Made by a program: the position numbers and the translations under genes. Below, piece by piece: positions 8,343 through 30,256 of a stretch of 43,441 nt of DNA (its first letter is position 1; each line of letters opens with the position of its first letter). Origin of the DNA: Mesorhizobium sp. (GTDB taxonomy: Bacteria; Pseudomonadota; Alphaproteobacteria; Rhizobiales; Rhizobiaceae); assembly GCA_004017535.1 (NCBI GenBank), contig SAJS01000028.1, positions 1 to 43,441 on the forward strand, written 5' to 3'. A model generated the notes under the pieces. That model saw only the letters and a list, made by a program, of their open reading frames with translations. It ran no database searches and had not been told where the DNA came from.

Positions 8343-8390
8343 GCGTTTGAGGTACAGGTCAGGCGGGCCTCACCTGAATATCGAAATGCT
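8343..8390. repeat. quasi-palindromic repeat, short copy A
   Basis: Contains CAGGTCAGGC and, a few bases on, GCCTCACCTGAATATC, the ends of the longer repeat seen at 19528 and 30111 without its centre. The arms pair except for the same C-C mismatch found in the long copies. It lies exactly between the stops of two convergent genes. Confidence 0.75.
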
Positions 8391-9017
8391 TCACAGGTTG
8401 ACCTTGAGAGTCTCCCAGAACTTGTCGATCAGCGGCTGTTCGGTCGCATTGTCCTGATCGCCGATGCGCGTGATGAAGAGCAGCCCCTGATCGGCGGTGC
8501 CAAAGCCGACAATCTCGAAATCCGCGCTGTCGGTGCGCGTCTTCACGGTAGCTTTAAGTCCAGTCAGATCCTTGCCGTCGGCGAGCTTGCGGGTCGTCGG
8601 CTGCTGCGTAAGGCGCCCACCCGCCTGGACCGTTTCCTTGGTCATCTCTTGCAGCATCAACTGGTTGAGGGAAACGGGGTTCATCTTGTCGTATTTCTGC
8701 ACGACGACGAGGGTGCCCAGCGCCGAAGCCATGAGGTACTGGGCGATGCCGTCGCCGAGATCGGTCTTGGTGACCGAATAATTGCTGGGATGGACGAAGG
8801 AGAATGTGCCGCCGGAGAAGGTGGCGAAGTCATTGTGCTCGAGCCTTACCTTGCTGGTCTTGCCGCCGGGCAGGGTCACCTCGATATCCTCGCCTGGATC
8901 GATGTCGACGGTCACGCCGTCGATGGTCAGCTTGAAGGCCTTCGGGTCCTCGGCACGGGCGACCCCGCCGCAAAGCATGATCGCGCCGAACGCCGCAGCC
9001 GCAATTTTCAGTCGCAT
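8391..9017 (-). CDS. secreted protein of unknown function
   Basis: A 208-residue protein with a clear Sec signal peptide (basic MRLK, a hydrophobic core, and a cleavage site likely after ARA near residue 22). The mature part is beta-rich, with TIDGVTVDIDPGEDI near its start, GGTFSFVHPSNYSV in the middle and LIDKFWETLKVNL at the end. I do not recognise the domain; the layout resembles small periplasmic proteins with a PsbP-like or stress-related fold, but that is weak. It faces the preceding gene tail to tail across a short repeat, its stop directly abutting that repeat, and is divergent from another secreted protein. Confidence 0.78.
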   Translation of the reverse strand: MRLKIAAAAFGAIMLCGGVARAEDPKAFKLTIDGVTVDIDPGEDIEVTLPGGKTSKVRLEHNDFATFSGGTFSFVHPSNYSVTKTDLGDGIAQYLMASALGTLVVVQKYDKMNPVSLNQLMLQEMTKETVQAGGRLTQQPTTRKLADGKDLTGLKATVKTRTDSADFEIVGFGTADQGLLFITRIGDQDNATEQPLIDKFWETLKVNL

Positions 9018-9159
9018 ATCTTGTTCTCTCCGTGCAGTTTCGGCCTAGCGCGCTTATCATTCTTTGATGACGGCTGGCGTGGGTCACTTTGCAACACCGG
9101 TTGATCACGTCCCCGCGATGCGGAAAGATAGGGGCCTTTCGGAAATGGGGGCCCCTTCG

Positions 9160-9654
9160 ATGACCTTGGCTGTTCGCGCCGCACTGTGTCTTCTCTGTGT
9201 GTTGGCGCCGGCGATCTCCGGCGCGCAAGCTACCGACCCGAATGACGACCGTGTGACCATATTCGCTCCGGGCGATCCGGAAATGGCAGCCGCGACAAAG
9301 CAAGCGCTTTCCAGCCTCGACGATTTCCTCGCGCTCGCCGATAGCCCTCCGGCCGGCACGTCGCGCTTCAAGCTGAAGGTGAAGGTAAAGGACGGCCATA
9401 TCACCGAGCATTTCTGGGTCGTGCCCTTCCGCCGCACCGAACCCGGATTTGTCGGAATCCTGTCGAACCAGCCCGCCGAGGTGCACAACGTCGTGCTAGG
9501 CCAGAACATCGAATTCACCAGGGATGACATTTCCGACTGGGGCTACACCAGGAACGGCCATCAGGTCGGCAGCTTCACTGTCTGCGTGATGTTCAAAAGG
9601 ATGTCGAAGGAGGAAGCCGACGACATGCGCGCCAAGTACGGCTTCGACTGCTGA
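9160..9654 (+). CDS. secreted DUF2314 (YegJ-like) domain protein
   Basis: A 164-residue protein with a signal peptide (about residues 1-24, cleavage near SGAQA) followed by a DUF2314 domain. The domain shows HITEHFWVVPF, GFVGILSNQP, DISDWGYTRNG and QVGSFTVCVM in family order. The function of DUF2314 is not known. The frame is open 32 codons upstream; the ATG at 9160 was chosen because GGGGG lies 8 bases before it and the signal peptide then starts at the N terminus. An ATG at 9145 is the alternative. It diverges from the other secreted protein with only about 140 bases between. Confidence 0.8.
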   Translation: MTLAVRAALCLLCVLAPAISGAQATDPNDDRVTIFAPGDPEMAAATKQALSSLDDFLALADSPPAGTSRFKLKVKVKDGHITEHFWVVPFRRTEPGFVGILSNQPAEVHNVVLGQNIEFTRDDISDWGYTRNGHQVGSFTVCVMFKRMSKEEADDMRAKYGFDC

Positions 9655-9774
9655 GACCGGCACCCGCCAGCGGACCTGTCTCTGAACCGACGCCCGTTTC
9701 GCCTCATACTCCTCGATGCCGCGCCTGATGCCCGTGATCACCGCCTCGCTCGGCATGAAATCCGCTGCTTCCAT
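9496..9774 (-). CDS. doubtful small ORF overlapping the DUF2314 gene
   Basis: A 92-codon frame whose first part (MEAADFMPSEAVITGIRRGIEE, then YEAKR; written here in two pieces) looks protein-like. Its second half runs antisense through the last 159 bases of the DUF2314 gene and looks like a shadow. Either a short real gene has lost its own stop or it is a degraded fragment. No family recognised. Confidence 0.2.
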   Translation of the reverse strand: MEAADFMPSEAVITGIRRGIEEYEAKRASVQRQVRWRVPVSAVEAVLGAHVVGFLLRHPFEHHADSEAADLMAVPGVAPVGNVIPGEFDVLA

Positions 9775-9857
9775 GGCCACCCCCGGCCGCAACTGAGATC
9801 GGCCTATGATAACGGCTTTTGCGCGAAAGTCGCCTGCGCCCCGGCGGGCGGGTGGGG

Positions 9858-10907
9858 CTATTTCCCCGAAGCTGGAAAAATCGTCTCCAGCCGGCCCGCA
9901 ACCCGCCGCTGCAGCGCGCCGCCCATAGCCTCCACCGGCACCAGCCGCTCGTGGTTGCCTGCTCGCAATCGCATGAAAAAATGCTGCCGGTAGGCGGCGA
10001 TCCTACCGCGCGTGGCCGGATCGGCGCTGATATCGACCACGAATATCGAGCCAATGCGTGCGGGCCATGGCGGCCTGGCCAATGCGGTGCCGAGGAAATC
10101 GCCGAGCCCATAAGCGGTGACGCCGCCGCCTATGTGCTCGACCGGTTGCACGACATGGGCATGATGCCCGACGATCAGCCCGGCGCCCTTCTCCGCCAGC
10201 CGCCTCGCCAGCGCTCGCGTCGCCTTGCGCGGAAAATGTCGGAACTCCCAGTCCCAGTGCGGCACCGCGCAGGTAAGGTCGATGCCGGACTTGGCGTCGC
10301 GCGGCCATTCGGCGGGACGCATAGAGATGCGTTTCTCGAACGGCGCGGGGCCGGTGTTGCGCCAGAGCGTGAGGGCTGCAAAACCGATGATCAGCGATCC
10401 GCCGGCATGACGCTGGACCGGTCCGTCGGCCAGCGCACCGATGGTGCGGACCCCGAGCCGATCGAGCGCCGCGAGCGTTTCCTCGAAACCGGCAATTCCC
10501 TGGTCGAGCACATGGTTGTTGGCCAATGAGAGCACTAGTCTATCGCGCGAGATGCCGACAGCGGCAAGCGCGTCCGCAAGAAAGCGCTCGCTCATCGCAT
10601 GTCGCGTGCCGAGCCAAGTCCCCACCAGCGCGCGTGGCCGTTCGACGATCGGGCTTTCGCAATTGCCGACCACGAGGTCAGCGGAGGAGAGCAGCGCGGC
10701 GATCGCCGGATCGCATTCCGGCACGCCGCGGTTAGCGACGGCCGAAATGTCGCCGACAAAGGCCAGTCGCATGGTCCGCATCGGCGGCGGATCGATGAAC
10801 GTCGCCGCTGGCGCGACAAAACCGCTTCGGTCACCACCGAGAGACGGTCTCAGCAGCCGTGGCAGCCAGGACAGCTTGTAGGAAAGCGGATAATTCGACA
10901 CGGGCAC
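9858..10907 (-). CDS. CapA/PgsA-family metallophosphoesterase-like protein
   Basis: A 349-residue CapA-family protein, a calcineurin-like fold linked in other bacteria to poly-gamma-glutamate synthesis but widespread with unknown roles. The motifs run in order: AFVGDIS, GNCESPIV, SLANNHVLDQG, PHWDWEF, GHHAHVVQPVE and AYGLGDFLG, giving the Asp, Asn and His residues expected around a dinuclear metal site. No capB or capC partner is near, so poly-glutamate export is not supported. Initiation is at GTG 10907; the ribosome site is weak and an internal Met at about residue 43 (MRTMRLAFVGD) is a possible alternative start close to the domain. Confidence 0.85.
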   Translation of the reverse strand: MPVSNYPLSYKLSWLPRLLRPSLGGDRSGFVAPAATFIDPPPMRTMRLAFVGDISAVANRGVPECDPAIAALLSSADLVVGNCESPIVERPRALVGTWLGTRHAMSERFLADALAAVGISRDRLVLSLANNHVLDQGIAGFEETLAALDRLGVRTIGALADGPVQRHAGGSLIIGFAALTLWRNTGPAPFEKRISMRPAEWPRDAKSGIDLTCAVPHWDWEFRHFPRKATRALARRLAEKGAGLIVGHHAHVVQPVEHIGGGVTAYGLGDFLGTALARPPWPARIGSIFVVDISADPATRGRIAAYRQHFFMRLRAGNHERLVPVEAMGGALQRRVAGRLETIFPASGK

Positions 10908-11048
10908 GTCCAGTTTTGCCCTCTGTAGACTGTCTGCCCGGCCGGTTGAAGCCTGGCGCTCTTGCGAAAGCGCCCACCGGTCGGCACGGGCCGGGGGACG
11001 CCTCGAGCCAAATACGTGTATGCTTGCGACACGACGCAGTGGAGGGCG

Positions 11049-12305
11049 ATGACGATGCGTAGAGCGATCCTTGCAGCAGCCTTGTTTTCATTCCTGCCGG
11101 CGTCCTTCGCCTGGGCGGAGATGCCGGACGCAGCCAAGTCCTTGTTCGAGGCGAAGAGCGTGGCCGAGCGGAACGCGGCGCTGTCGACATTGGAGGTGGC
11201 AGCGGCCAAGGACCCGGCCTCAGCCTATGCTGCCGGCGCCGGCGAGTTCTTCACCGCGCTCGAGCTCCTCGCCGGCGGCCTGCATCGCCACGGCTTCGAC
11301 AGCCCGAAATCCTTCATGCTGCCGCTGATGCAGCTGCCCGTGCCCGACAATCCCAACCCGCAGCCGCTGACCTATGAAGAATTCCGCGCCATCCTGGTCT
11401 CCTTCCGCGACCGGCTGGAAAAATCCGCCGCAACGCTGGGTTCCGTCCCGGCCAACGCCGACATCGGCATGGTCGTCGACCTCACCCGCGCTGGCATCGA
11501 TCTCAACGAGGACGGCGCCATCGCGCCGGACGAAAGCTTCGCCGCGATCATGGCAGCGCTCTCACGCGGCAGCGTCGACACGAGCGCTGCCGCGCCCTCG
11601 CTCACCTTCCGCTTCGACCGCGCGGATGGTTTCTGGCTGCAAGGCTATGCGGAGTTCCTGATGGCGCAGGCCGATTTCTGGCTGGCGCATGATTTCAAAG
11701 CCATGTTCGACGGCTCTTTCCACATGCTGTTCCCGCGCGCCAAACTGCCGCTGCAGGACGCGCTGGTGCCGCTGGACGGTGGCATGAGCGGCAACATGTT
11801 CGCCTCGGAATGGCGTTTCGCCGACTTCATCTCGCTGGTGCATCTCGTCAACTGGCCGGTGATCGAGCCGGAACGCCGGCAGGCCGCGCGACGCCATCTG
11901 CTGGAGATGATCCGGCTGTCGCGCGAGGACTGGAAAGCGATCCTGGCCGAGACCGACAACGACCGCGAATGGCTGCCCGGGCCGCAGCAGAAAGGCGCCA
12001 ATCCCCTCACCGGCCTCGACGTCGGCCAGGAGCAGGTAACCGCTTGGCTCGCCACGCTGACCATGGCCGAGGACCTTCTCGAAGGCCGCGTGCTGCTGCC
12101 GCATTTCCGCATCGCCGGCAAGGGCATCAACATGAAGCGCTTCTTCGACGAGCCGAAACCCTTCGACCTCGTTCTGTCGATAACCGGCCCCGGCATCGCG
12201 CCCTATCTCGAAAGCGGCAAGATCCTCACCAGCGACGATTTCGACCAGATCCAGCGCGAGTTCGGCGGTGCCGGCTTTTTGACGTTTGCGCTGTGGTTCA
12301 ATTGA
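11049..12305 (+). CDS. secreted protein of unknown function
   Basis: A 418-residue protein with a signal peptide ending near AWAEM (about residue 24). The mature chain is long and helical, and includes a single EF-hand-like loop, DLNEDGAIAPDE, close to residue 160. Aromatic-rich segments such as GFWLQGYAEFLMAQADFWLAHDF follow in the middle. I do not recognise the family. The ATG at 11049 follows GGAGGGC at good spacing; the frame is open 29 codons further but without coding look. It is divergent from the CapA-like gene and probably transcribed alone. A periplasmic role is inferred only from the signal. Confidence 0.78.
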   Translation: MTMRRAILAAALFSFLPASFAWAEMPDAAKSLFEAKSVAERNAALSTLEVAAAKDPASAYAAGAGEFFTALELLAGGLHRHGFDSPKSFMLPLMQLPVPDNPNPQPLTYEEFRAILVSFRDRLEKSAATLGSVPANADIGMVVDLTRAGIDLNEDGAIAPDESFAAIMAALSRGSVDTSAAAPSLTFRFDRADGFWLQGYAEFLMAQADFWLAHDFKAMFDGSFHMLFPRAKLPLQDALVPLDGGMSGNMFASEWRFADFISLVHLVNWPVIEPERRQAARRHLLEMIRLSREDWKAILAETDNDREWLPGPQQKGANPLTGLDVGQEQVTAWLATLTMAEDLLEGRVLLPHFRIAGKGINMKRFFDEPKPFDLVLSITGPGIAPYLESGKILTSDDFDQIQREFGGAGFLTFALWFN

Positions 12306-12340
12306 GGGTCGCAAGCCTTGAGTTCCTCCCCCAATGAAAT

Positions 12341-12475
12341 GGAGGAGAGGTGGCTGGGCGAAGCCGAGACGGAGAGGGGAGCGCCGGTTTGGGAGGGCGA
12401 AAGCGCCTCGAGGGGAAGGGCTTCACCCTTACGAAGCCCCCTCTCCGTCCGCTTCGCGGACACCTCTCCCCTGCC
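12341..12475. repeat. intergenic palindromic element
   Basis: Two arms, about 12344-12380 and 12438-12471, carry GGAGAGGTG..GCGAAGC..GACGGAGAGGGG and its reverse complement with small differences, around a 57-base centre. The arms themselves contain short dyads (GCGAAGC region). It fills most of the gap between the secreted protein gene and uvrB. Elements of this look are frequent between rhizobial genes. Confidence 0.75.
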
Positions 12476-12627
12476 TCTGGCGGGCGCCAAGAACCTGGTC
12501 CGCGTTAGCCTCTCCCAGCGGGTCATGACGCCGCTCCTGACAGCCTTCTGTCAGCAGCATCCGCGCCCGGCCGGCGTCCATTCACTCGGCCCTTTCCATT
12601 TCGGCCGAGTCCACCCATATTCGGGCC

Positions 12628-15762
<3,135 letters not shown>

Positions 15763-15767
15763 CGCCT

Positions 15768-19527: not shown

Positions 19528-19671
19528 AAGCTGGGTTGAGATTGAGGTCAGGCCGAGTCGAGAATGGTGGTTCCCGAGAACCGGAGCGGAGCGTACTTAA
19601 AGTACGTGAGCACCGGAAGCGCAGGGAATCGCCGTTCGCAGGCTGGCCTCACCTCAATATCAGCCTAGCTT
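19528..19671. repeat. quasi-palindromic repeat, long copy B
   Basis: An imperfect palindrome of about 72-base arms centred on CGTACTTAAAGTACG (19592-19606). The outer arm AAGCTGGGTTGA pairs with TCAGCCTAGCTT using two G-T wobbles. ATTGAGGT (19541-19548) pairs with ACCTCAAT (19651-19658). The right arm includes the last codons and stop of the sulfotransferase gene. Confidence 0.85.
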
Positions 19672-21294
19672 GTCCAGCAGCGGCTTCAGCCTGTCCCCAT
19701 ACCGCTTCCACAGGTCGACCGAGCCCTGATACATCGGCTGGCGCACCTGCGCGGCGGAAGCGGTGCGCACCGGCCGGTCCGTCTCGTGGAAGGACAGAAC
19801 CTTGTCGTCCCAGGGCAGGCCGAGATGCGCCATCAGCGCCCGCGTCTGCCCTTCCTGGTCGGCGACGAAATCCTCATAGCGCACATCGTGCACGACGCCC
19901 GGCAGCACCTTGTGCCAATGCGCCATGATGTCGGTGTAGAGGTTATGGAAATCGGCGAGCTCGCCGAGGTCGTAGCCGTAGCGATGGCTGTCGCCGCGGA
20001 AATGCACCTTGAAGATCGACAGGCACGTCGCCGCCGCGTCGCGCGCGCAATGGACGATCTTGGCCTTCGGCAGCATCATGTGCAGGAAGCCGACCAGCAT
20101 GAAGTTGCCCGGCATCTTGTCGGTGACATGGCGGTAGCCCGGATAGCGGCTATGCAGCATGTCGAGATAGGCCTGACCCGCCTCGGCGAAGGCCTTGTCT
20201 GGCATGTCGGCGATCCCTGCGGGAAATCCGCCCGGCATGCTCATCGGAAACTGCTTGCCGACGGCCGTCTTCAGGATGTTCAACTCGCCGGCGCCATAGA
20301 CCTGCGGATGGCTGGCGATGATCTGCTCGACCAGCGTGGTGCCGGAACGCGGCATGCCGACAACGAAGATCGGCGTGTCGTCTGAAATATCGCTTGTCCG
20401 GTGCTTCTCGAAGAAGGTCTTGTCGAAGGCCGCCTTCATCGCCTCGAATTCGCCGCGCGTGCGGACCGGATCGTAGTCGATGCCCTGGCGGCGGATGGCA
20501 TTGCCCTCGGCGAAATAGTCGAAAGCGCGGCCATAGTCCTTGAGGTCGTCATTAACCTTGCCGAGACCGAAGGAAAGCTGCATGCGCGCCAGGCTGCCCT
20601 GCGGCGCCTTGGCATGCTCGGCTTCCATGCCGGCAAGCTCCTTGTCGCGTTCGGTCTGACGCTTGACCTGGGTCAAAAGCAGCCAGGCCTTGGCCATGCC
20701 GGGAACAACCGCCACCGCCTGTCGGGCAAGATCGGCGGCTTCGTCGAGCTTGCCCTTCTCCATCATGGCCACGCCGAGCCCATAGAGCAGCTCGGCGTCC
20801 TTCGGCCGGATCGACAAGGACTCGCGGAACAGCTTGATCGCCTCATCCAGCCGCCCGGCCTCCTGCAGCGTTTCCGCAAGCCCGATGCGGGCGCGGACAT
20901 GGAATGGATTGCGGCCGATCGTGCCGCGAAAGATCTCCTCGGCGGCATCGAACTGGCCGAGCTGCTTCAGCGACGAGCCGAGATTGTCGCGCGCGGCCAA
21001 CTGGTCCGGCTTGATATCCACCGCGCCGCGAAAGAAATCGACCGCGGCGGCGATCCGGCCGAGATCGCGCATGACGGTGCCCATATTGTTGAGGAAGTCG
21101 GCATTCCTGGGCTGCAGCGTCACCGACTGTTCGATGAAATCGAGCCCCTCCTCGCTGCGGCCGGTCTGGTGCAGCAGCAGTCCGAGGAAGTGCAAGGCGG
21201 CGGCATGGTTCGGCTGCTGCCCCAGAACCTGCCGGTAGAGCGCCTCGGCTTCCTGACGGCGCCCGGCCTGGTGCAGCTGCAGCGCCCGCTGCAC
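19660..21294 (-). CDS. TPR-repeat sulfotransferase
   Basis: A 544-residue protein with an N-terminal TPR array (about residues 1-250, repeats such as ALHFLGLLLHQTGRSEEGLD and DNLGSSLKQLGQFDAAEEIF) and a C-terminal sulfotransferase domain. The PAPS-binding loop is VVGMPRSGTTLVEQI near residue 312, and the later HCARDAAATCLSIF matches the 3'-phosphate motif. It should move sulfate from PAPS to an unknown acceptor. The listed GTG at 21294 has no ribosome site. The frame continues with coding look for 24 codons and more, but without ATG, GTG or TTG, back to a stop near 21400. The true start is therefore uncertain. Confidence 0.88.
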   Translation of the reverse strand: MQRALQLHQAGRRQEAEALYRQVLGQQPNHAAALHFLGLLLHQTGRSEEGLDFIEQSVTLQPRNADFLNNMGTVMRDLGRIAAAVDFFRGAVDIKPDQLAARDNLGSSLKQLGQFDAAEEIFRGTIGRNPFHVRARIGLAETLQEAGRLDEAIKLFRESLSIRPKDAELLYGLGVAMMEKGKLDEAADLARQAVAVVPGMAKAWLLLTQVKRQTERDKELAGMEAEHAKAPQGSLARMQLSFGLGKVNDDLKDYGRAFDYFAEGNAIRRQGIDYDPVRTRGEFEAMKAAFDKTFFEKHRTSDISDDTPIFVVGMPRSGTTLVEQIIASHPQVYGAGELNILKTAVGKQFPMSMPGGFPAGIADMPDKAFAEAGQAYLDMLHSRYPGYRHVTDKMPGNFMLVGFLHMMLPKAKIVHCARDAAATCLSIFKVHFRGDSHRYGYDLGELADFHNLYTDIMAHWHKVLPGVVHDVRYEDFVADQEGQTRALMAHLGLPWDDKVLSFHETDRPVRTASAAQVRQPMYQGSVDLWKRYGDRLKPLLDKLG

Positions 21295-22528: not shown

Positions 22529-22610
22529 TAGGCGCAATCGCCTGTCCTTTGCGGATGCAATGATGCGGCAGGATCCTGAACGGGCTTCTAGACAGGCTCG
22601 AAATTGCGAA

Positions 22611-22637: not shown

Positions 22638-22765
22638 CGCGCACAAATGCTTGGATCGGCAGGCGAAAACTTTCTCTTGCCGATGACGCTAAAATAAAGG
22701 ACAAATTTCCTCTCGGGCAATTTGCCGGCCCGAGACTTGACTTGATGGGATCAAAGGAGTTTCCC

Positions 22766-22978
22766 ATGCCGCAGACCGGCACCGTCAAATTCTTCAACCA
22801 TGCCAAGGGCTTCGGCTTCATCACGCCCGACGATGGCGCGAAGGATGTCTTCGTCCACATCTCGGCCGTGCAGGCGTCGGGCCTTCCCGGTCTTGAGGAT
22901 GGGCAGAAAGTGACATTCGACACCGAGCCGGACAAGCGCGGCAAGGGTCCGAAGGCCGTCAATCTGTCGATCGGCTGA
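22766..22978 (+). CDS. cold-shock domain protein (CspA family), second copy
   Basis: A 70-residue paralogue of the gene at 22316, differing at about a dozen positions but with the same RNP1 KGFGFITPD and RNP2 DVFVHIS motifs. The start at 22766 is fixed by the GGAGTTTCCC ribosome site shared with its neighbour; a longer frame upstream is the untranslated leader. The duplication is tandem and includes the translation-initiation region, so the copies probably differ in when they are induced. A GGCGGG/CCCGCC hairpin (23014-23033) follows but has no T run. Confidence 0.96.
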
Positions 22979-23053
22979 GCCGGCTCACGACGGATCCGAC
23001 GGAGGTCATGTCAGGCGGGGGGGCGTTCCCGCCGGGTATCGCGCTGTGCCCAA

Positions 23054-23088
23054 GCCTCGAAATACCGCCAGGCCTCGAAAATCGCCAG
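23054..23088 (+). repeat. short tandem repeat, two units
   Basis: GCCTCGAAATACCGCCAG is followed directly by GCCTCGAAAATCGCCAG, differing by a short indel and a substitution. It lies in the 236-base gap between csp and the BA14K gene, in which I otherwise see only a promoter region. Confidence 0.5.
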
Positions 23089-23214
23089 GCCACAAAAAAT
23101 CGTTTACGCCGATTTCCGTTCAGCCTCCGTTCAGCCACGGTCTTCTATTAACCTTTGCTAAAGCCGGCTCGCATCCCCGGAAAAATGCGCGGGCCGGCGC
23201 GAAGGAGACCGAAG

Positions 23215-23625
23215 ATGAACCGTTTTCTCAAGACCGCCATTCTGGGCGTTGGCATCGCCGCGACCACCCTGGCCACCTTCTCGACGGCCAATGCCGACGA
23301 CTGGCGCTGGCACCATCATCGCCATCATAACGGCGACGCTCTTGCCGCCGGCGTTGTCGGCCTCGCGGCCGGCGCCCTGATTGGCAGCGCGCTAAGCAAC
23401 CCCGGGCCGCGCTATTACGAACCGGCCTATGGTGACGACTACTATGTCGACCGGCCGGTGCGCCGCTACTATGTGCAGCCGCGCGTCGTCTATGCCGACC
23501 GCTATGCCGAGCCGTGGACCCGGGCCTGGTACGAATATTGCTCGGATCGCTACCGCACCTTCAATTCGCGGACCGGCACCTTCACCGGCAGCGACGGCGA
23601 CCAGCATTTCTGCGTCGCGAACTAA
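23215..23625 (+). CDS. BA14K-family exported protein
   Basis: A 136-residue protein with a signal peptide (cleavage near ANADD, residue 28), a His-rich WHHHRHHN stretch, a glycine/alanine hydrophobic segment (ALAAGVVGLAAGALIGSAL) and a Tyr/Arg-rich middle. The C terminus YEYCSDRYRTFNSRTGTFTG is the BA14K signature, with a last Cys forming the expected pair. BA14K of Brucella was described as an immunoreactive, lectin-like protein needed for normal envelope properties. The ATG at 23215 follows GAAGGAGACC. The gene stands alone with its own terminator. Confidence 0.85.
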   Translation: MNRFLKTAILGVGIAATTLATFSTANADDWRWHHHRHHNGDALAAGVVGLAAGALIGSALSNPGPRYYEPAYGDDYYVDRPVRRYYVQPRVVYADRYAEPWTRAWYEYCSDRYRTFNSRTGTFTGSDGDQHFCVAN

Positions 23626-23652
23626 GAAAGTCCAGGGTTCCCTGCCCAGAAA

Positions 23653-23682
23653 AGCGCCGCCTCCAGCGGTGCTTTTTCTTTT
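23653..23682 (+). terminator. terminator after the BA14K gene
   Basis: AGCGCCGC-CTCCA-GCGGTGCT forms an 8-base stem with one G-T pair and is followed by TTTTCTTTT. Confidence 0.82.
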
Positions 23683-23691
23683 GCATGCGGA

Positions 23692-24333
23692 TCAGGTGAG
23701 AAAGGGATTGGTCCGCCGCTCGTCGCCGAAACGGCTGCCCGGCCCATGGCCGCAGATGAAACCGATATCGTCGCCAAGCGGCAGAAGCTTGTCCTTGATC
23801 GAGGCAATCAACGCGGCGTGGTCGCCGCCGGGCAGATCGGTGCGACCGATCGAGCCGCGGAACAGGACGTCGCCGACATGCGCGAATCTGGCCGCGCGGT
23901 TGTAGTAGACGACATGGCCGGGCGCGTGCCCCGGGCAATGCAGCACTTCGAACACGTGATTGCCGAAGGACACCGTCTCGCCTTCAGTGAGGAAGCGGTC
24001 CGGCACGCAATTGCGCACCGGATCGGTCAGACCGAAGCGCCTGGCCTGGTTCTCGAGATTGGCAAGCAGTGGCCTGTCGGCTTCGTGCGGGCCGATAATG
24101 TCGATGCCCAGCGCATCCTTCAACTCCATCGCCCCTCCGGCATGGTCGATATGGCCATGCGTTATCCAGATCGCGCCGGCCTTGATGGCGTTGTCCTTCA
24201 GCACCTTCAGCACCTGGTCAATATCGCCGCCGGGATCGACGACGACGCCGTTCTTGTCGTCCATGTCGAACAGGATGGTGCAGTTCTGCTGGAACGGCGT
24301 GACCGGCACGATGCCGGCATTGAGCTGACCCAT
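23692..24333 (-). CDS. metallo-beta-lactamase-fold hydrolase (GloB/YcbL-like)
   Basis: A 213-residue glyoxalase II-like hydrolase. The metal motif THGHIDHAGG (H-x-H-x-D-H), a later His in HCPGHAPGH, Asp in HVGDVLF and a C-terminal His in CGHGPGS supply the dinuclear zinc or iron site. YcbL-type enzymes cleave S-lactoylglutathione or related thioesters. The ATG at 24333 has AAAGGAAAG upstream and gives the family start; the 34 codons beyond it are not coding-like. A diverged copy of the repeat seen at 38.1 kb lies just upstream, so the 5' untranslated region appears to be repeat-derived. Confidence 0.9.
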   Translation of the reverse strand: MGQLNAGIVPVTPFQQNCTILFDMDDKNGVVVDPGGDIDQVLKVLKDNAIKAGAIWITHGHIDHAGGAMELKDALGIDIIGPHEADRPLLANLENQARRFGLTDPVRNCVPDRFLTEGETVSFGNHVFEVLHCPGHAPGHVVYYNRAARFAHVGDVLFRGSIGRTDLPGGDHAALIASIKDKLLPLGDDIGFICGHGPGSRFGDERRTNPFLT

Positions 24334-24344
24334 GGCTTTCCTTT

Positions 24345-24374
24345 CTCGAGCAATTCTAGGAAAAGTCTGAACCG
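24345..24374. repeat. diverged copy of the 38.1 kb repeat
   Basis: CTCGAGCAATTCTAGGAAAA followed by GTCTGAACCG matches, with a handful of differences, the reverse complement of the repeat at 38103-38132. It sits 11 bases upstream of the metallo-hydrolase start codon. Confidence 0.6.
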
Positions 24375-24451
24375 CTCCGGTTGTCGCCCTGATGTAGATA
24401 GGCGGGCAAACGGCGTCCACTGCCGGCCAGCACAAATATCCGGAAACGAAA

Positions 24452-24473
24452 ATGGGCGGCCGAAGCCGCCCAT
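24452..24473 (-). terminator. terminator after the glycine-rich protein gene
   Basis: ATGGGCGGC/GCCGCCCAT is a perfect 9-base stem whose minus-strand loop reads TTCG closed by C-G, a very stable tetraloop, followed by TTTCGTTTCC. Confidence 0.85.
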
Positions 24474-24496
24474 CTGAAAACTTGAAGCGAGAGGCC

Positions 24497-24823
24497 TTAT
24501 TTCTTCATCGCGTTCATGACCGCGCCGATGATGCCGGTCAGGATGGCGCCGCCGCCCACGCCGCCGAGAAGGTTCTTCAGGTCCAGCGCGCTGCCTATGC
24601 CGCCCGCCGCGGCCGCCGCGTCGACACCACCGCCGCCCAGCAGACTGCCGAGGATGGCCGCACCGCCGACGCCGCCGATCGCGCCGCCGAGGATCTTGGT
24701 AAGCTGGCCCATCGCCGCCTGCTTCAGCGCCGCACCGACCGCCTGGCCGCCGATAATGCCGGCAATTACCTGTACAACGATCTGGAATAATCGTGTTGCT
24801 GTCCATGTAACTTGTCCCTCCAT
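24497..24823 (-). CDS. glycine-rich membrane-associated protein, unknown
   Basis: A 108-residue product rich in Gly and Ala with long hydrophobic stretches (VVQVIAGIIGGQAVGAAL, ILGGAIGGVGGAAILGSLLG, GGVGGGAILTGIIGAVMNAM) that could form glycine-zipper helices in or on a membrane. I do not recognise the family. The start is unsure: the ATG at 24823 is used, but a good ribosome site (GGAGGGAC) inside this frame points to an ATG in another frame that would give no plausible protein. It is followed by a UUCG terminator, so the gene itself is likely real. Confidence 0.6.
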   Translation of the reverse strand: MEGQVTWTATRLFQIVVQVIAGIIGGQAVGAALKQAAMGQLTKILGGAIGGVGGAAILGSLLGGGGVDAAAAAGGIGSALDLKNLLGGVGGGAILTGIIGAVMNAMKK

Positions 24824-24896
24824 AGCCGCCTGCCTCCAAGGGCCGACACCATCATGAGACGCCGAACCGTTCGAAAGTCAAATGTATGAAAGCTTA

Positions 24897-24924
24897 AATA
24901 AAAAGGGCGGCCCGAAAACCGCCC
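24897..24924 (-). terminator. terminator after ilvE
   Basis: GGGCGG/CCGCCC with an 8-base loop is followed on the minus strand by TTTTTATT, about 30 bases after the ilvE stop. Confidence 0.82.
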
Positions 24925-24952
24925 ATATTGCACAAAAAAGCTGTGACTATCG

Positions 24953-25846
24953 CTATTCTGCGGCGATCGCATGTTTTGGTTGCACTGCAGCAGAATAGTC
25001 ATTCATCAAGGTCTTGGCGATTTCGCCAACCTCGAATCGGTATGGACCGATCTCCGAAACCGGTGTCACCTCGGCCGCGGTACCGGTCAGGAAGCATTGC
25101 TCGAAACCTTCGAGCTCTTCCGGCATGATGGCGCGCTCGATCACTTCGAAACCACGGTCCTTGGCCAGGCCGATCACCGTGCGGCGGGTGATGCCGTCGA
25201 GGAAGCAGTCGGGCGTCGGCGTATGGATCTTGCCGTCCTTGACGAAGAAGATATTGGCGCCGGTGGCTTCCGCCACCTGGCCGCGCCAGTCGAGCATCAT
25301 GGCGTCTGCATAGCCCTTGGCCTCGGCGGAATGTTTGGACAGCGTGCAGATCATGTAGAGGCCGGCGGCCTTGGACTTCGACGGCGCGGTGCGCGGATCT
25401 GGCCGGCGCCATTCGGCGATATCGAGGCGGATGCCCTTGAGCTTCTGCGCAGGGTCGAAATAGCTCGGCCACTGCCAGATGGCGATGGCGCAATTGATGC
25501 GGTTGTTCTGCGCCGAGACGCCCATCTGCTCGCTGCCGCGCCAAGCGATCGGACGCACATAGGCGTCCTGAAAACCCTGTTTCTTCAAAAGCGTCCGGCA
25601 GGCCTCGTCGATCTCGGCGACCGGATAGGGAATCTTGAAGCCGAGCAGGCGTGCCGATTCATGCAGACGCTCATTGTGCTCGGTCAGCTTGAAGATCTGG
25701 CCGCCATAGGCGCGCTCGCCCTCGAAGACGGCGCTGGCATAGTGCAGGCCATGGGTCAGCACATGGATCTTGGCGTCGGCCCATTTGACGAACTCGCCGT
25801 TCATCCAGATGAAGCCGTCCAGTTGATCGAAGGGAACGGATGCCAT
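24953..25846 (-). CDS. ilvE: branched-chain amino acid aminotransferase
   Basis: A 297-residue fold-type IV aminotransferase that makes leucine, isoleucine and valine from their 2-keto acids, with glutamate as donor. It has the IlvE N-terminal block (FIWMNGEFVKW, HGLHYASAVFEGERAYGG), a PLP lysine at K159 in SKSKAAG, the glutamate E194 region AEATGANIFF, and DGITRRTVIGLA. Length and start are normal. D-amino acid or aromatic transaminases share the fold, but the HYASAVFEGERAY block fits IlvE. It diverges from petP with a 33-base palindrome between. Only its own terminator follows, so it is monocistronic. Confidence 0.93.
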   Translation of the reverse strand: MASVPFDQLDGFIWMNGEFVKWADAKIHVLTHGLHYASAVFEGERAYGGQIFKLTEHNERLHESARLLGFKIPYPVAEIDEACRTLLKKQGFQDAYVRPIAWRGSEQMGVSAQNNRINCAIAIWQWPSYFDPAQKLKGIRLDIAEWRRPDPRTAPSKSKAAGLYMICTLSKHSAEAKGYADAMMLDWRGQVAEATGANIFFVKDGKIHTPTPDCFLDGITRRTVIGLAKDRGFEVIERAIMPEELEGFEQCFLTGTAAEVTPVSEIGPYRFEVGEIAKTLMNDYSAAVQPKHAIAAE

Positions 25847-26057
25847 GGAAACCTCCCGCGGGCGGGTGCCCGCAAATCGTTGTGTTTTTTATAGCCTTCG
25901 TGCCAGCCCCATCGCAGGATCCGAAACGCTGGCCAGTGCTTGAAAGCGTAGGCGGATATTCAATTCGTGGCAAACTCAGGAAAGTCCGGAAAAACGGCTT
26001 CCGCTTGCCTTTTCGTTCGCAATCCGCCGAAAAGCTTGTCAAAAATTATCATTGCCC

Positions 26058-26090
26058 GGGAATTACGTCAATAGTACTGACATAATTCCC
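26058..26090. promoter_or_regulatory. 33-base imperfect palindrome between ilvE and petP
   Basis: GGGAATTA at 26058 mirrors TAATTCCC at 26083-26090, with GTCA and TGAC inside, centred on 26074. It lies about 18 bases before the petP start, overlapping where its promoter or leader should be. MarR-family proteins bind such dyads, so petP autoregulation is the natural guess. Confidence 0.6.
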
Positions 26091-26108
26091 GCCTCGCATG
26101 GAGAAATG

Positions 26109-26636
26109 ATGACGAGCCCCGCAGCCGGAAAACCGATCAGGACGGCGATCGCCGATGAGGACGGCATCGACTTCGCCATCATCGAACTGTTCTTCTTCGC
26201 CTATCGCGATTTCACCTCCGACCCGGACCAGATCCTCGCCGACTATGGCTTTGGCCGCGCCCATCACCGAGTGCTACACTTCGTCAACCGCAGGCCGGGC
26301 CTCACCGTCGCCGAACTGCTCGATGTGCTGAAGATCACCAAGCAGAGCCTTGCGCGGGTCTTGAAGCAGTTGATCGACACAGACCATATCGTCCAGGTGC
26401 AGGGGCCGCGCGATCGCCGGCAGCGCGAGCTCTACCCGACCGCCAAGGGCCGCGCGCTGGCCTTGGCGCTGGCGCGGCCACAGTCGCGCCGCATCCGTGC
26501 GGCATTGGAGGATTCCGGAGCCACCGAACGCGCCACGATCGAGCGATTCCTGGAAGCGATGGTCAATCCGGAACTAAGAGCGCAGATCGACATTGTGCCT
26601 GCGCAAACATCGGGGAAGAACCATGGAGACCATTGA
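26109..26636 (+). CDS. petP: MarR-family regulator PetP
   Basis: A 175-residue MarR regulator. The winged helix is clear: LTVAELLDVLKITKQSLARV (helix-turn-helix), then DRRQRELYPTAKGRALA (wing and start of the next helix). It is followed by petR with a 14-base overlap, the order known from Rhodobacter capsulatus petP-petR, which affect cytochrome bc1-linked growth there; the symbol rests on that arrangement. Two ATGs are adjacent (26106, 26109); the second has the better spacing to GGAG. The palindrome just upstream is probably its operator. The ligand is unknown. Confidence 0.85.
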   Translation: MTSPAAGKPIRTAIADEDGIDFAIIELFFFAYRDFTSDPDQILADYGFGRAHHRVLHFVNRRPGLTVAELLDVLKITKQSLARVLKQLIDTDHIVQVQGPRDRRQRELYPTAKGRALALALARPQSRRIRAALEDSGATERATIERFLEAMVNPELRAQIDIVPAQTSGKNHGDH

Positions 26637-27342
26637 GAAGGTCGATCATCCGGCCGCGCCCGACGATGACGCGCCGCATCTTCTGGTCGTCGATGACGAC
26701 ACGCGTATCCGCAACCTGCTCAAGCAGTATCTGTCCGAGAATGGCTTTCGCGTCACTGTCGCCGGCAATTCCGGCGAAGCCAGGCGCAAGCTCGCCGGCC
26801 TCGACTTCGACCTTCTGGTGCTCGATGTCATGATGCCGGGCGAAACCGGCGTCGATCTCACCAAGGCGCTGCGGGCCGAGAAGAACGTGCCGATCCTGAT
26901 GCTGACGGCGCTGTCCGAGACCGACAGCCGCATCAGCGGGCTGGAAGCCGGCGCCGATGATTACCTGCCGAAACCGTTCGATCCGCGCGAGCTGATCCTG
27001 CGCATCAACAACATTCTGCGCCGTGGCGGCCCGGCCGCGACACCGAAGGTGGAACAGCTGGTGTTCGGGCCCTACACGTTCCAGATCGCCAAGCGCGAAT
27101 TGAAGCGCGGCGGCGAGGCGCTTAAGCTGACCGACCGCGAGCAGGAGATCCTCGCGATCTTCGCCGCGCGGGCGGGCGAGACCATACCGCGCCATGAGTT
27201 GGTGGGCGACGAATCGGATGTCGGCGAGCGCACCATCGACGTGCAGATCAACCGGTTGCGCCGCAAGATCGAGCGCGATCCGTCCAATCCGGTGTGGCTG
27301 CAGACGGTGCGCGGAATTGGGTATCGGCTCAGCGTCGAATAA
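26623..27342 (+). CDS. petR: OmpR-family response regulator PetR
   Basis: A 239-residue response regulator. The receiver domain (about 18-133) has the acidic pair VVDDD, phosphoacceptor D68 in LVLDVMMPGE, a Thr in MLTALS and K117 in YLPKPFDPREL. The OmpR winged helix (about 145-237) has LKLTDREQEIL, SDVGERTIDVQINRLRRKIE and GIGYRL. The ATG at 26623 lies inside the end of petP, so the two are translationally coupled. A sensor kinase follows after about 50 bases and is the probable phosphodonor. The target genes cannot be told from this window. Confidence 0.93.
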   Translation: METIEKVDHPAAPDDDAPHLLVVDDDTRIRNLLKQYLSENGFRVTVAGNSGEARRKLAGLDFDLLVLDVMMPGETGVDLTKALRAEKNVPILMLTALSETDSRISGLEAGADDYLPKPFDPRELILRINNILRRGGPAATPKVEQLVFGPYTFQIAKRELKRGGEALKLTDREQEILAIFAARAGETIPRHELVGDESDVGERTIDVQINRLRRKIERDPSNPVWLQTVRGIGYRLSVE

Positions 27343-27394
27343 ATTACCCTCGAAGGCCCTTTGCTGAACAGGCCATCGACGAGCGGAAGGGCGA

Positions 27395-28810
27395 ATGGCG
27401 ACCACGCAACTGGAACAGCCGAAAGGGAGCGGCCCCGGCGATCTCGCGCTACGGACGCTGAGGGCGATGCCGCGCGCCTGGAACCGGTTCTGGCGCCTGA
27501 TCGCGCTCTACATGCCGAAGCGGCTCTACGCGCGCTCGCTGATCATCGTCATCGCGCCGATGATCCTATTGCAGTCGGTGATCGCCTTCGTCTTCATGGA
27601 ACGCCACTGGCAGACGGTCACCCAGCGCCTGTCGCAGGCGACGATCTCGGACATTGCGGCCGTCATCGACATGATGGAGACCTATCCGCACGACGCCGAC
27701 TACGCCAACATCATCCGCATTGCCCAGGACCGCATGCAGTTGAAAGTGGATCTGCTGCCGCCAGATCCGTTGCCGCCGCCTGGCCCGAAGCCGTTCTTCT
27801 CGATCCTCGACGAGGCGCTGTCGTCGGAGATCACGAGACAGATCAACCGTCCGTTTTGGATCGACACAGTCGGCAACTCGAACGTCGTCGAGGTCCGCGT
27901 CCAACTCGAAGGCAAGGTGCTGCGCGTCTTCGTGCGGCGCAGCCAGGCTTATGCCTCGAATACGCATATCTTCCTGATCTGGATGGTCGGCACCTCGCTG
28001 GTTCTGCTGATGATCGCCATTCCCTTCCTGCGCAATCAGATCAGGCCGATCCTGACGCTTGCCGAGGCTGCCGAAAGTTTCGGCAAGGGCCGGCCGATGC
28101 CGCGCGATTTCCGCCCGCGCGGCGCCGAGGAGGTTCGCCGCGCCGGCTTCGCCTTCATCCAGATGCGTGAGCGTATCGAGCGGCAGATCGAGCAGCGCAC
28201 CGCCATGCTGACCGGCGTCAGCCACGACCTCAGGACGATCCTCACCCGCTTCAAGCTGCAGCTGGCGCTGGCCGGCGGCAAAGCCGAGACCAAGGCCGCG
28301 CTCAACCAGGATATCGATGACATGCAGTCGATGCTGGAAGGCTATCTCTCCTTTGCTCGTGGCGAGGCCGCGGAGGATACCGGCCGTTTCGACCTCAACG
28401 CCTATTTCCAGAAGCTCGGCGAGGAAGCGCAATTGCGTGGCTGCAAGCTCACGACGACGCTGACCGGCGATCCGGCCGTGCATGTGCGGCCGAACGCCTT
28501 TGCCCGTTTGCTTTCGAACGTCATCGGCAATGCTTTCCGCTATGCCAAGGCCGTCGAGGTCCACGCCAACCACGGCCGTGGCTCGCTCACCGTCACCATT
28601 GACGACAATGGGCCGGGTATCGCGCCCGACAAGCGTGAAGAAGTGTTCAAGCCATTCCTGCGGCTGGACGAGGCGCGCAACCTGGATGCCAGCGGCACCG
28701 GACTTGGCCTGTCAATCGCTCGCGACATCGCCCGCAGCCACGGCGGAGACATCAGCCTCGAGGACAGTCCGCTCGGCGGCCTGCGCGCCGTCATCAAGGT
28801 GCCCGCCTAG
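27395..28810 (+). CDS. sensor histidine kinase (EnvZ-like), partner of PetR
   Basis: A 471-residue membrane kinase. Two membrane segments (about 48-70 and 191-212) bracket a periplasmic sensor of about 120 residues with a proline-rich LPPDPLPPPGPKP stretch. Then come HAMP (PILTLAEAAESFGKG), a HisKA dimer helix with H277 in GVSHDLRT and an HATPase domain with NVIGNAFRYAK (N box), DDNGPGIAPDK (G1), and GTGLGLSIA (G2). The H box reads SHDLRTILTR, with Ile in place of the usual Pro after Thr, as in some alphaproteobacterial EnvZ-like kinases. The position after petR suggests they form one pair. The stimulus is unknown. Confidence 0.92.
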   Translation: MATTQLEQPKGSGPGDLALRTLRAMPRAWNRFWRLIALYMPKRLYARSLIIVIAPMILLQSVIAFVFMERHWQTVTQRLSQATISDIAAVIDMMETYPHDADYANIIRIAQDRMQLKVDLLPPDPLPPPGPKPFFSILDEALSSEITRQINRPFWIDTVGNSNVVEVRVQLEGKVLRVFVRRSQAYASNTHIFLIWMVGTSLVLLMIAIPFLRNQIRPILTLAEAAESFGKGRPMPRDFRPRGAEEVRRAGFAFIQMRERIERQIEQRTAMLTGVSHDLRTILTRFKLQLALAGGKAETKAALNQDIDDMQSMLEGYLSFARGEAAEDTGRFDLNAYFQKLGEEAQLRGCKLTTTLTGDPAVHVRPNAFARLLSNVIGNAFRYAKAVEVHANHGRGSLTVTIDDNGPGIAPDKREEVFKPFLRLDEARNLDASGTGLGLSIARDIARSHGGDISLEDSPLGGLRAVIKVPA

Positions 28811-28813
28811 CCA

Positions 28814-28858
28814 GAGCATGATCCCGAACCGACCTTCGTTTCGGACAAGATCAGGCTC
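28814..28858. repeat. palindromic repeat after the kinase gene
   Basis: GAGCATGATC pairs with GATCAGGCTC (one mismatch) around CCGAA..TTCGG. I recall close relatives of this sequence as abundant Mesorhizobium intergenic repeats. It begins 4 bases after the kinase stop and may serve as transcription end. The rest of the 263-base gap to the next gene shows no further feature. Confidence 0.6.
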
Positions 28859-29073
28859 AATCGAAAACAGCTTCATCCGCCCGTCATGAAATCATGGTGA
28901 AGAGCGCGCATGAAGCGCGCGACCCTTGTTGATTCGGCTCTGCCGCCCCGCTTCGCCCCTGCCCGGATGTACTGGAGCGAGGCGCGAGCTGCCGCCTGGC
29001 TGCCGTTCCGGCACAGTGCCGGCGCGTCCAGGAGTTATCGCGGCGATGGACCGTCATACGCAGCGGGATCGCC

Positions 29074-30096
29074 ATGCGCATCCTGATGGTCACCGACGCT
29101 TGGCGGCCGCAGGTCAATGGCGTGGTGCACACGCTCGAACGCCTCACCGAGGCGCTGAAGCCCTTCGACGTCGAGCTCGACTTCCTGACGCCGAACCTCT
29201 TTCGCACCTTGCCAATGCCGACCTATCCCGACATCCGGCTCGCGCTGACGACGCCGGGTCATGTCGCGCGCCGGATCGAGGCCGCCAGGGCCGACCACAT
29301 CCACATCGTCACCGAGGGTCCGCTCGGCATCATGGCGCGCCGCTATTGCCGCAAGGCCGGCCGCCCCTTCACCACCAGCTACCACACGCGCTTTCCCGAA
29401 TATCTCAGCGCCCGCCTGCCAGTGCCGGAAAGCTGGGCTTACAACTGGCTACGCGACTTCCACAATTCCGGACAGGGCACGCTTGTCGCCACGCAATCGC
29501 TGACGGACGATCTCGCGGCGCGCGGCTTCAACAAGCTGAGGCCCTGGACGCGCGGCGTCGACACCAACCATTTCCGGCCCGACAAGCGCAAGGAAACCGG
29601 ATTTCCGCGCCCGGTCTTCCTGTGCGTCGGCCGCGTCGCGATCGAAAAGAACCTGACCGCCTTCCTCGATCTCGACCTGCCCGGCAGCAAGGTGATCGTC
29701 GGCGAAGGGCCGGAACTGGCAAAACTCAAGGCGCGCTATCCCGACGCGCATTTCCTCGGCCATCGCCCGAACGACGAGCTGGCCGAGATCTACGCCTCGG
29801 CCGATGTGTTCGTGTTCCCGAGCCGCACCGACACCTTCGGCAACGTCATCATCGAGGCGCTGGCCAGCGGAACGCCGGTGGCCGCCTATCCGGTGACCGG
29901 ACCGATCGACATTGTCGGCGATGGCGTCGGCGGAGCCGTGTCGAACGACCTGGGCGCGGCGGCGATGAAGGCGCTTGAGGTCGATCGCGCCGAAGCGCGC
30001 CAGCGCGCCATGCGCTACAGCTGGAAGGCCTGCGCCGAAATGTTCCTCGACGCGGTCGACGAAGCGCAGGGCAGGACGCGTAAACTGGCAGCCTGA
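29074..30096 (+). CDS. GT4-type glycosyltransferase, possibly glycolipid-forming
   Basis: A 340-residue GT-B glycosyltransferase. The N-terminal domain opens MRILMVTDAWRPQVNGVV and includes TSYHTRFPEY; the C-terminal domain has VGRVAIEKNL, IVGEGPELAKL and the E-x7-E-like region SRTDTFGNVIIEAL. It would transfer a sugar from a nucleotide donor with retention. Rhizobial relatives of this size make glycolipids (glucosyl- or glucuronosyl-diacylglycerol) under phosphate limitation, which is my best guess but not proved by the sequence. No other lipid gene is adjacent. The gene ends 15 bases before a long palindrome. Confidence 0.88.
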   Translation: MRILMVTDAWRPQVNGVVHTLERLTEALKPFDVELDFLTPNLFRTLPMPTYPDIRLALTTPGHVARRIEAARADHIHIVTEGPLGIMARRYCRKAGRPFTTSYHTRFPEYLSARLPVPESWAYNWLRDFHNSGQGTLVATQSLTDDLAARGFNKLRPWTRGVDTNHFRPDKRKETGFPRPVFLCVGRVAIEKNLTAFLDLDLPGSKVIVGEGPELAKLKARYPDAHFLGHRPNDELAEIYASADVFVFPSRTDTFGNVIIEALASGTPVAAYPVTGPIDIVGDGVGGAVSNDLGAAAMKALEVDRAEARQRAMRYSWKACAEMFLDAVDEAQGRTRKLAA

Positions 30097-30110
30097 TACA
30101 ACGTGGCGAT

Positions 30111-30256
30111 TAGGATGCGCCGAGATTCAGGTCAGGCCGAACTGAGAATGGTGGGCTCCGAGAGCCGGCGCGGAGCGTACTTGAAGTACGTGAGCACCGG
30201 AAGCGCAGGAGACCGCCATTCGCAAGCCGGCCTCACCTGAATATCGGCGCATCCTA
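30111..30256. repeat. quasi-palindromic repeat, long copy C
   Basis: An imperfect palindrome of about 73-base arms centred on CGTACTTGAAGTACG. The outer arm TAGGATGCGCCGA (30111-30123) pairs perfectly with TCGGCGCATCCTA (30244-30256). ATTCAGGT (30125-30132) pairs with ACCTGAAT (30235-30242), a compensated version of copy B. The outermost three bases are the csaA stop codon. Confidence 0.87.

What the first reader, a model, noticed from the sequence alone, without database searches (positions are those of the whole stretch)
8343..30256. Quasi-palindromic repeat found only between convergent gene ends, with compensatory changes and copy-specific complementary arms
Three copies lie at 8343-8390, 19528-19671 and 30111-30256, each between the stops of two convergent genes. 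The long copies share a centre (CGTACTT-N-AAGTACG), a G-A mismatch and a C-C mismatch (GGTCAGG opposite GGTGAGG read in reverse). Between copies B and C the stem ATTGAGGT/ACCTCAAT becomes ATTCAGGT/ACCTGAAT, a double change that keeps the pair. The outer 12-13 bases differ wholly between B and C but pair within each copy (perfectly in C, with two G-T wobbles in B). They run into the last codons or stop of the minus-strand gene. This suggests selection for an RNA hairpin, for example a shared two-way terminator, or a template-switching process that keeps extending the palindrome into unique flanks.
Basis: partly seen in the sequence, partly recalled or inferred. Interest (0 to 1): 0.75.

Follow-up and report, generated by a model that had tools for sequence, protein, structure and literature searches.

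The report
Stop-codon-hugging palindrome repeated across alphaproteobacterial genomes
A 146-base hairpin-forming DNA repeat sits, usually in one fixed direction, on the stop codons of genes in Mesorhizobium and its relatives, and its strand depends on chromosome position, which suggests an old mobile element kept as an RNA hairpin on the strand opposite to the gene.

Summary
The palindromes are real. B and C belong to a dispersed family: about 50 copies in this genome, hits in 36 of 37 same-genus genomes, 34 of 109 genera sampled in the family, and Sphingobium plasmids. Covariation holds: 404 double-change cells against 87 in shuffles. Two corrections. The outer arms are one degenerate shared arm that keeps pairing. 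Convergent position is a by-product: the element starts on one gene's stop codon, in fixed orientation, in 84 of 112 loci; the other neighbour is convergent in 60, tandem in 42. Where a stop triplet is in register, its last two bases are mirrored in the far arm in 50 of 61 loci. G-U exceeds A-C about 6:1 on one strand, antisense to that gene. Strand depends on position: 45 of 47 ortholog-merged right-arm sites in Mesorhizobium share one strand; in another genus strand flips between arms. No U-tract follows. Best reading: an old MITE-like element, perhaps YTAR-targeting, kept as an RNA hairpin on antisense transcripts. Function unproven. New variant of a known kind.

The parts
30111..30256 (+). 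Copy C, full 146-bp element (H strand = + strand)
   Evidence: CM R1 177.3 bits, E 1.2e-41 (this copy is in the model's training set); fold z -10.3
30111..30123 (+). Copy C left outer arm TAGGATGCGCCGA, pairs with 30244-30256
   Evidence: sequence, fold
30244..30256 (+). Copy C right outer arm TCGGCGCATCCTA; its last three bases are the complement of the stop codon TAG of the minus-strand gene
   Evidence: sequence, ORF 30254-30613 -
30124..30124 (+). Conserved G of the G.A mismatch (partner A at 30243); G.A in 93 of 100 loci
30133..30133 (+). Conserved C of the C.C mismatch (partner C at 30234); C.C in 94 of 100 loci
30176..30190 (+). Hairpin centre CGTACTT-G-AAGTACG
30254..30613 (-). Gene (119 aa) whose stop codon abuts copy C; all 80 orthologs fetched have their stop at the same place (79 directly after the last aligned residue, one 2 codons on where the alignment ended early); the arm motif follows in 3 of the 80
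29074..30096 (+). Convergent neighbour; its 3' end lies 14 bases before copy C, so the H strand would be its 3' UTR
   Evidence: gene caller
19528..19671 (+). Copy B, full element; same orientation as C
   Evidence: CM 167.3 bits, E 3.4e-39 (in the training set); fold z -10.7
19660..21294 (-). Gene whose last codons run into copy B's right arm (second-frame class, stop TGA 10 bases inside); 9 of 112 loci are of this class
8335..8396 (+). Copy A, short form without the inner part; same orientation
   Evidence: CM 23.7 bits, E 0.00066; fold alone z -1.24
8391..9017 (-). Gene whose TGA stop (8391-8393) abuts copy A in the same register (read by eye)

Best explanation
It is a dispersed, non-coding, formerly mobile palindromic element of Alphaproteobacteria, of the MITE / RIME / Bru-RS kind. 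It may have entered at YTAR sites with duplication of TA; at gene ends the stop codon itself (YTAR) would be the tolerated target and is preserved. Shown here: mostly fixed orientation starting on the stop codon; native stop at the same codon in orthologs without it; the stop codon's last bases mirrored in the far arm; covariation between loci and between orthologs; fold tolerance (G-U over A-C) on one strand only, the strand antisense to the abutted gene; strand dependent on chromosome position. Inferred: after insertion it is kept because the antisense-direction RNA (from a convergent neighbour or from antisense transcription), which in the densely occupied arm runs head-on to the replication fork, folds into a ~146-nt hairpin. 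That hairpin would end or cap such transcripts, as a 3' exonuclease barrier or a non-intrinsic, Rho-linked end, at the border of the coding region. Orientation would come from insertion coupled to the replication fork, from loss of wrongly oriented copies, or from both.
For: Family. Abutment: 84 of 112 loci, 58 of 77 after merging orthologs. The same abutment appears with depositors' gene calls in 6 of 12 plasmid records looked at (Sphingobium, Shinella, Novosphingobium; element ends extrapolated from the match). Native stop at the same place in 80 of 80 orthologs of copy C's gene. TAR stops are 45 of 58 at abutting elements (a 59th row gave no stop triplet and was left out) against 38% of 1078 sampled genes; Y before TAR 33 of 45 against 41%; TA on the far side in register 13 of 70 against 2.4% in an outward control. 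IS711 is reported to target YTAR and to prefer Bru-RS palindromes (PMC2266754, passages seen). Covariation. Strand of the fold: G-U:A-C 106:17 outer, 134:21 inner; outer arms in convergent sites 53:10, in tandem sites 46:6. Stop mirrored: 50 of 61. Position: 45 '-': 2 '+' among ortholog-merged right-arm sites, 5 in the other arm (62 best-scoring of 214 placed copies). Another genus, G163: 9 of 10 and 8 of 11 copies oriented against the fork in the two arms, Fisher p 0.0075 with one copy near dif left out, 0.030 with it counted against.
Against: No transcription data. In 42 of 112 loci the neighbour is tandem, so no neighbouring gene is transcribed in the hairpin's direction, yet pairing is equally good there. 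In Mesorhizobium the copies in the other arm do not reverse strand: within 1 Mb of mnmG 15 of 19 keep '-', further out 8 '-' and 10 '+'. So in this genus the polarity is not plainly fork-coupled. In the plasmid records 6 of 12 places do not abut a stop. No transposase was identified, and no pair of alleles close enough to prove insertion rather than deletion was found. The far-side TA is weak (13 of 70). The loci examined are the best-scoring ones, not a random draw.
Confidence: 0.45

Rival explanations
1. DNA-level rival: the strand that tolerates G-T folds as single-stranded DNA and is the substrate of a transposase or recombinase. Orientation and arm bias reflect single-stranded DNA at the fork; the host gains nothing.
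For: Two conserved mismatches would give strand polarity to a near-palindrome; G-U excess is the same in tandem and convergent sites; strand follows chromosome position.
Against: Compensation continues after insertion between orthologous copies, which mobility alone does not need. For a fork moving away from mnmG the exposed lagging template would be the other strand (reasoned, not tested). No near-identical recent copies among the 30 copies of this genome compared: best pair 94.4%, median 82.6%.
Confidence: 0.25
2. Palindrome correction (template switching) keeps the arms complementary and copies the gene end, stop codon included, into the far arm. No selection is needed.
For: Stop codon mirrored in 50 of 61 loci; double changes common.
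Against: Two mismatches conserved in 93-94 of 100 loci; G-U 106 against A-C 17; 63 single changes that still pair between orthologs.
Confidence: 0.12
3. Two-way intrinsic transcription terminator shared by convergent genes.
For: Position between gene ends; strong hairpin.
Against: No U-tract on either side: 0 and 1 of 100. 42 of 112 sites are tandem. Fold preserved on one strand only.
Confidence: 0.08
4. Gene-sense 3'-UTR stabiliser of the abutted gene, as reported for REPs of E. coli (PMC5082802, passages seen).
For: Starts on the stop codon in mostly fixed orientation.
Against: On the gene-sense strand the variant pairs are A-C mismatches, not G-U, so this strand is not the one whose folding is preserved.
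Confidence: 0.1

Closest known systems
Bru-RS1/Bru-RS2 palindromic repeats of Brucella (Halling and Bricker 1994, not seen; PMC2267715 and PMC2266754, passages seen)
   Same: Dispersed ~100-bp palindromes in a sister group; IS711, reported to target YTAR, prefers them; four Brucella/Ochrobactrum loci fetched here share the central core. That those four are Bru-RS is my inference: no Bru-RS sequence was compared.
   Different: The outer arms of those four loci look unrelated and no gene end lies on the element there by my gene caller; Bru-RS are reported at 103-105 bp.
RIME (Rhizobium-specific intergenic mosaic elements; PMC2573895 passages seen; original paper not held)
   Same: Rhizobial intergenic repeats with conserved secondary structure.
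   Different: The RIME sequence could not be compared. In the plasmid searches Ensifer has one record, listed as E. adhaerens.
Br-REP1/Br-REP2 of Bradyrhizobium (PMC5082802, passages seen)
   Same: Palindromic repeats in 3' UTRs; the first was found in overlapping 3' UTRs of convergent genes, with complementary sRNAs suggested.
   Different: Short printed consensus (20-40 nt) of other sequence; no stop register or strand bias appears in the passages I saw.
REP/BIME of Enterobacteria with RAYT; ERIC; Correia (recalled)
   Same: Dispersed palindromes near gene 3' ends; possible non-autonomous mobility.
   Different: No relation of sequence tested; no RAYT sought.

Membership tests
Intrinsic (Rho-independent) terminator | GC-rich hairpin followed by a T-run | tested here: not met
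   6 or more T in the 10 bases after the hairpin: 0 of 100 and 1 of 100; control 3 of 100
Rfam RNA family | match to a curated family | tested here: not met
   0 matches in the window at gathering score; 0 for 30050-30320 up to E 5
Bru-RS | sequence relation over the whole element | tested here: inconclusive
   only the centre is shared with 4 Brucella/Ochrobactrum loci, which were not proven to be Bru-RS
RIME | RIME consensus sequence | not testable with these tools
   PMC177356 not held
MITE with TA target duplication (IS5/IS427-like) | terminal inverted repeats | tested here: met
   outer arms pair in 95.4% of cells (helix 1)
MITE with TA target duplication (IS5/IS427-like) | YTAR target with TA on both sides | tested here: inconclusive
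   gene side YTAR 27 of 70, far side 12 of 70, outward control 1.2%; stop codon and pairing confound it
MITE with TA target duplication (IS5/IS427-like) | parent transposase with the same ends | not tested
REP/RAYT | RAYT transposase and GTAG-headed REP (recalled) | not tested
   no RAYT search made

The most novel reading that the evidence does not exclude
A polar chromosome mark: a hairpin element whose strand is dictated by replication direction, largely confined in Mesorhizobium to one chromosome arm, and placed to end head-on (antisense) transcription at the stop codons of co-directional genes. In effect a dispersed set of one-way barriers that separates head-on transcription from leading-strand genes and labels one arm.
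Probability: 0.2. Interest if true: 0.88.

Novelty: new variant of a known kind. Interest (0 to 1): 0.62.

Why it matters
Palindromic intergenic repeats are usually treated as scattered debris. This family has four measurable regularities at once: stop-codon register, the stop codon mirrored ~140 bases away, folding preserved on the antisense strand only, and strand tied to chromosome position. Together they make the old question of what such repeats do testable with RNA 3'-end mapping and copy deletions, and the repeat may record past replication directions or arm inversions.

Tried and rejected
Intrinsic terminator: rejected for lack of a U-tract. 'Unique, unrelated arms': rejected after aligning 27 copies. 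Gene-strand bias as the cause of the element's strand bias: rejected, 43% and 49% of right-arm genes are '+' in the two genomes sampled. Strand-biased mutation as the cause of G-U excess: disfavoured, since the 4-fold skews point the other way; this is reasoning, not a fitted model. Left arm as merely repeat-poor: not supported, an unrelated repeat, family A, occurs in both arms. My early idea that the element inserted into a ready-made terminator hairpin: the relatives nearest to copy C (L204, L205, L207-L210, L219) carry a short hairpin whose outer bases match the element's, but this may equally be the remnant of a deleted element; left open. parS pattern as origin marker: 0 of 12 genomes, replaced by mnmG. 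Literature: searches (open-licence library; listings, plus passages of four papers) showed me no report of such strand or stop-codon behaviour.
Full report
OBSERVATION. Copies B and C fold into single hairpins of -94.1 and -95.1 kcal/mol, z -10.7 and -10.3. Copy A is a short form lacking the inner part; it is recognised by the covariance model (E 0.00066 in the window), but its fold alone is not exceptional (z -1.24). A similar short allele occurs in a relative (L068) opposite long alleles in L069, L071 and L105.

FAMILY. blastn with copy C lists 43 matches in the window's own genome (40 of 80 candidates scored; three of the 43 are antisense or partial readings). A 20-base core pattern with up to 2 mismatches has 53 matches there, 0 for the reversed control. 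The covariance model R1, built from 27 copies, lists 107 matches at E <= 0.1, many of them the antisense reading of the same palindromes (150 of 4024 candidates scored). The model searches score only the best candidates, so counts are lower bounds. R1 hits 38 of 61 genomes including this one: 36 of 37 of the genus and 2 of 24 from other families. In the taxonomic family it hits 39 of 121 genomes, 34 of 109 genera, own genus included. In plasmids it has 30 records, among them Sphingobium of another order at 76.7% identity over the full length; in phages none. No Rfam family matches.

STRUCTURE. The shared structure has 52 pairs. On 100 loci, 97.0% of cells pair (shuffled 90.3%), 404 cells carry double changes (shuffled mean 87), and sliding the partner by 1-3 columns drops pairing to 30-40%. 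The alignment was fitted to the model, which favours it; the 27-copy alignment made without structure already gave 25 of 52 pairs with double changes. The 100 rows include orthologs, so cells are not independent. Between orthologous sites, 434 outer-arm comparisons gave 259 same, 63 single changes still paired, 57 double changes still paired, 36 single and 19 double broken; one cluster contains a non-orthologous copy (L068), which distorts these counts somewhat.

WHICH STRAND. Reading the strand of copy C's + orientation (H), non-Watson-Crick cells are G-U 106 and A-C 17 in the outer arms, 134 and 21 inside (two pairs that are G-U by majority left out of the inner count). Convergent sites give 53:10 and tandem sites 46:6 in the outer arms; the 30 copies of this genome alone give 31:8 and 38:14. 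Slid controls also show more G-U than A-C in 5 of 6 shifts, but at ratios of about 1.5-2.8, not 6. Mutation in double-stranded DNA would make both equally unless strand-biased, and the 4-fold skews suggest that bias would act the other way (reasoning). So folding of the H strand is what is preserved, and H is antisense to the abutted gene.

STOP CODON. With a simple codon-usage gene caller on loci L001-L143 (five without a core match dropped, duplicates merged, 112 left; these are best-scoring loci, not a random draw), the neighbours in H orientation are (+,-) 60, (-,-) 42, (+,+) 6, (-,+) 3, (?,-) 1. The right-hand minus gene ends within -5 to 0 bases of the element end in 84 of 112; 9 are in a second frame (-12 to -14), 10 lie further away, and 9 have no minus gene there. 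Merged by orthology it is 58 of 77, with 5 second-frame and 14 neither. The arm contains a stop triplet, so one frame in three would abut by itself; 58 against 5 among the two classes is far more. All 80 orthologs of copy C's gene have the stop at the same place, and only 3 carry the arm motif after it (L206, L223, L238). With depositors' annotation, 6 of 12 plasmid places abut in about the same register (H1, H25, H26, H27, H29, H35, element end extrapolated by me) and 6 do not (H7, H18, H20, H21, H22, H28); H25 and H29 are probably the same site. In 61 of the 100 aligned loci the register columns read a stop triplet; its last two bases are mirrored in the far arm in TAG with AG 27 of 32, TAA with AA 15 of 19, TGA with GA 8 of 10, 50 of 61 in all (the other 39 loci are one or more bases out of that register or do not abut). 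At one orthologous site TAA/AA stands against TGA/GA (L009 against L085 and L095).

TARGET. TAR stops are 45 of 58 at ortholog-merged abutting elements (a 59th row gave no stop triplet) against 38% of 1078 sampled genes; Y precedes TAR in 33 of 45 against 41%. On the far side TA stands in register in 13 of 70 against 2.4% in an outward control. This resembles YTAR targeting, reported for IS711 (PMC2266754, passages seen), with TA duplication, but pairing and coding constraints confound it. I found no allele pair close enough to prove insertion: L025 against L178 and L126 against L147 keep the stop position but are about 87% alike upstream.

STRAND AND CHROMOSOME ARM. In 11 complete or near-complete same-genus genomes, with mnmG taken as origin marker (its nearness to the origin is recalled), the 214 merged pattern and model hits are: clockwise arm 167 '-' and 10 '+', other arm 23 '-' and 14 '+' (from; nine of the 11 chromosome lengths there are rounded estimates). 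Merging orthologs among the 62 loci held with a position leaves 45 '-' and 2 '+' against 2 '-' and 3 '+'. Genes in the clockwise arm are 43% and 49% '+' in the two genomes sampled, so gene strand does not explain it. The motif GGGNAGGG (KOPS, recalled) converges roughly opposite mnmG in those two genomes. In G163, of another genus, KOPS and skews show two ordinary arms, and the element is oriented against the fork in 9 of 10 and 8 of 11 copies, with one copy near dif left out (p 0.0075; 0.030 if counted against; arms assigned by me). Two more genera (G092, 8 copies; G093, 2) were not assigned to arms. Against simple fork coupling: in Mesorhizobium the sparse other arm does not flip (within 1 Mb of mnmG 15 of 19 are '-'; further out 8 '-' and 10 '+'). 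Possible causes are an old inversion in that arm with loss of misoriented copies, or a polarity of another origin. This is unresolved.

MECHANISM. The most economical account is an old palindromic element, perhaps TA-targeting. Orientation would be imposed at insertion by the fork or by later loss; retention would be as an RNA hairpin in transcripts running antisense to the abutted gene, ending or capping them at the coding border. The insertion target, loss and RNA function are inferred. The equally good pairing in tandem sites is the strongest objection and keeps a single-stranded-DNA rival alive.

PRIOR WORK. Related kinds are Bru-RS, RIME, Br-REP and enterobacterial REP/ERIC. Text searches in an open-licence library showed me nothing describing stop-codon register, mirrored stop codons or arm-dependent strand for such repeats; I saw the listings and passages of PMC2573895, PMC2267715, PMC2266754 and PMC5082802, not whole papers, and most subscription papers are not held.

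Noticed in passing
L144-L203; G003, G004, G033: An unrelated abundant repeat (family A, GGAAAACCGNTNCACACTTTTCNTGGAATTGCT) lies mostly on the mnmG-frame + strand in G003 (42:8) and G004 (46:9), in sampled windows of both arms, but not in G033 (28:25).
   Followed up: partly
L144-L203, L286-L305: 4-fold-site GC skew differs between + and - genes with the same sign in both arms of G003 and G004, whereas G163 shows ordinary opposite arms, clearest in TA skew; perhaps a trace of an old rearrangement in Mesorhizobium.
   Followed up: partly
L204, L205, L207-L210, L219 just after the copy-C gene: In the nearest relatives a short hairpin (TAGGAC...GTCCTG, with a compensated TAGAAC...GTTCTG in L210) stands where copy C stands; remnant or earlier state unclear.
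   Followed up: partly
L024, L027, L030; L111, L133, L137, L140, L206: Mosaic or longer variants of the element with extra inner sequence or one changed arm.
   Followed up: no
L268, L270, L271, L276: Brucella/Ochrobactrum loci with only the central core in common, upstream of the orthologous gene.
   Followed up: no
L326-L330, L332, L333 (G163): A subfamily with arms around AGAGRCYG...CTCT; by my gene caller 5 of these 7 end within 2 bases of a minus-gene stop.
   Followed up: no
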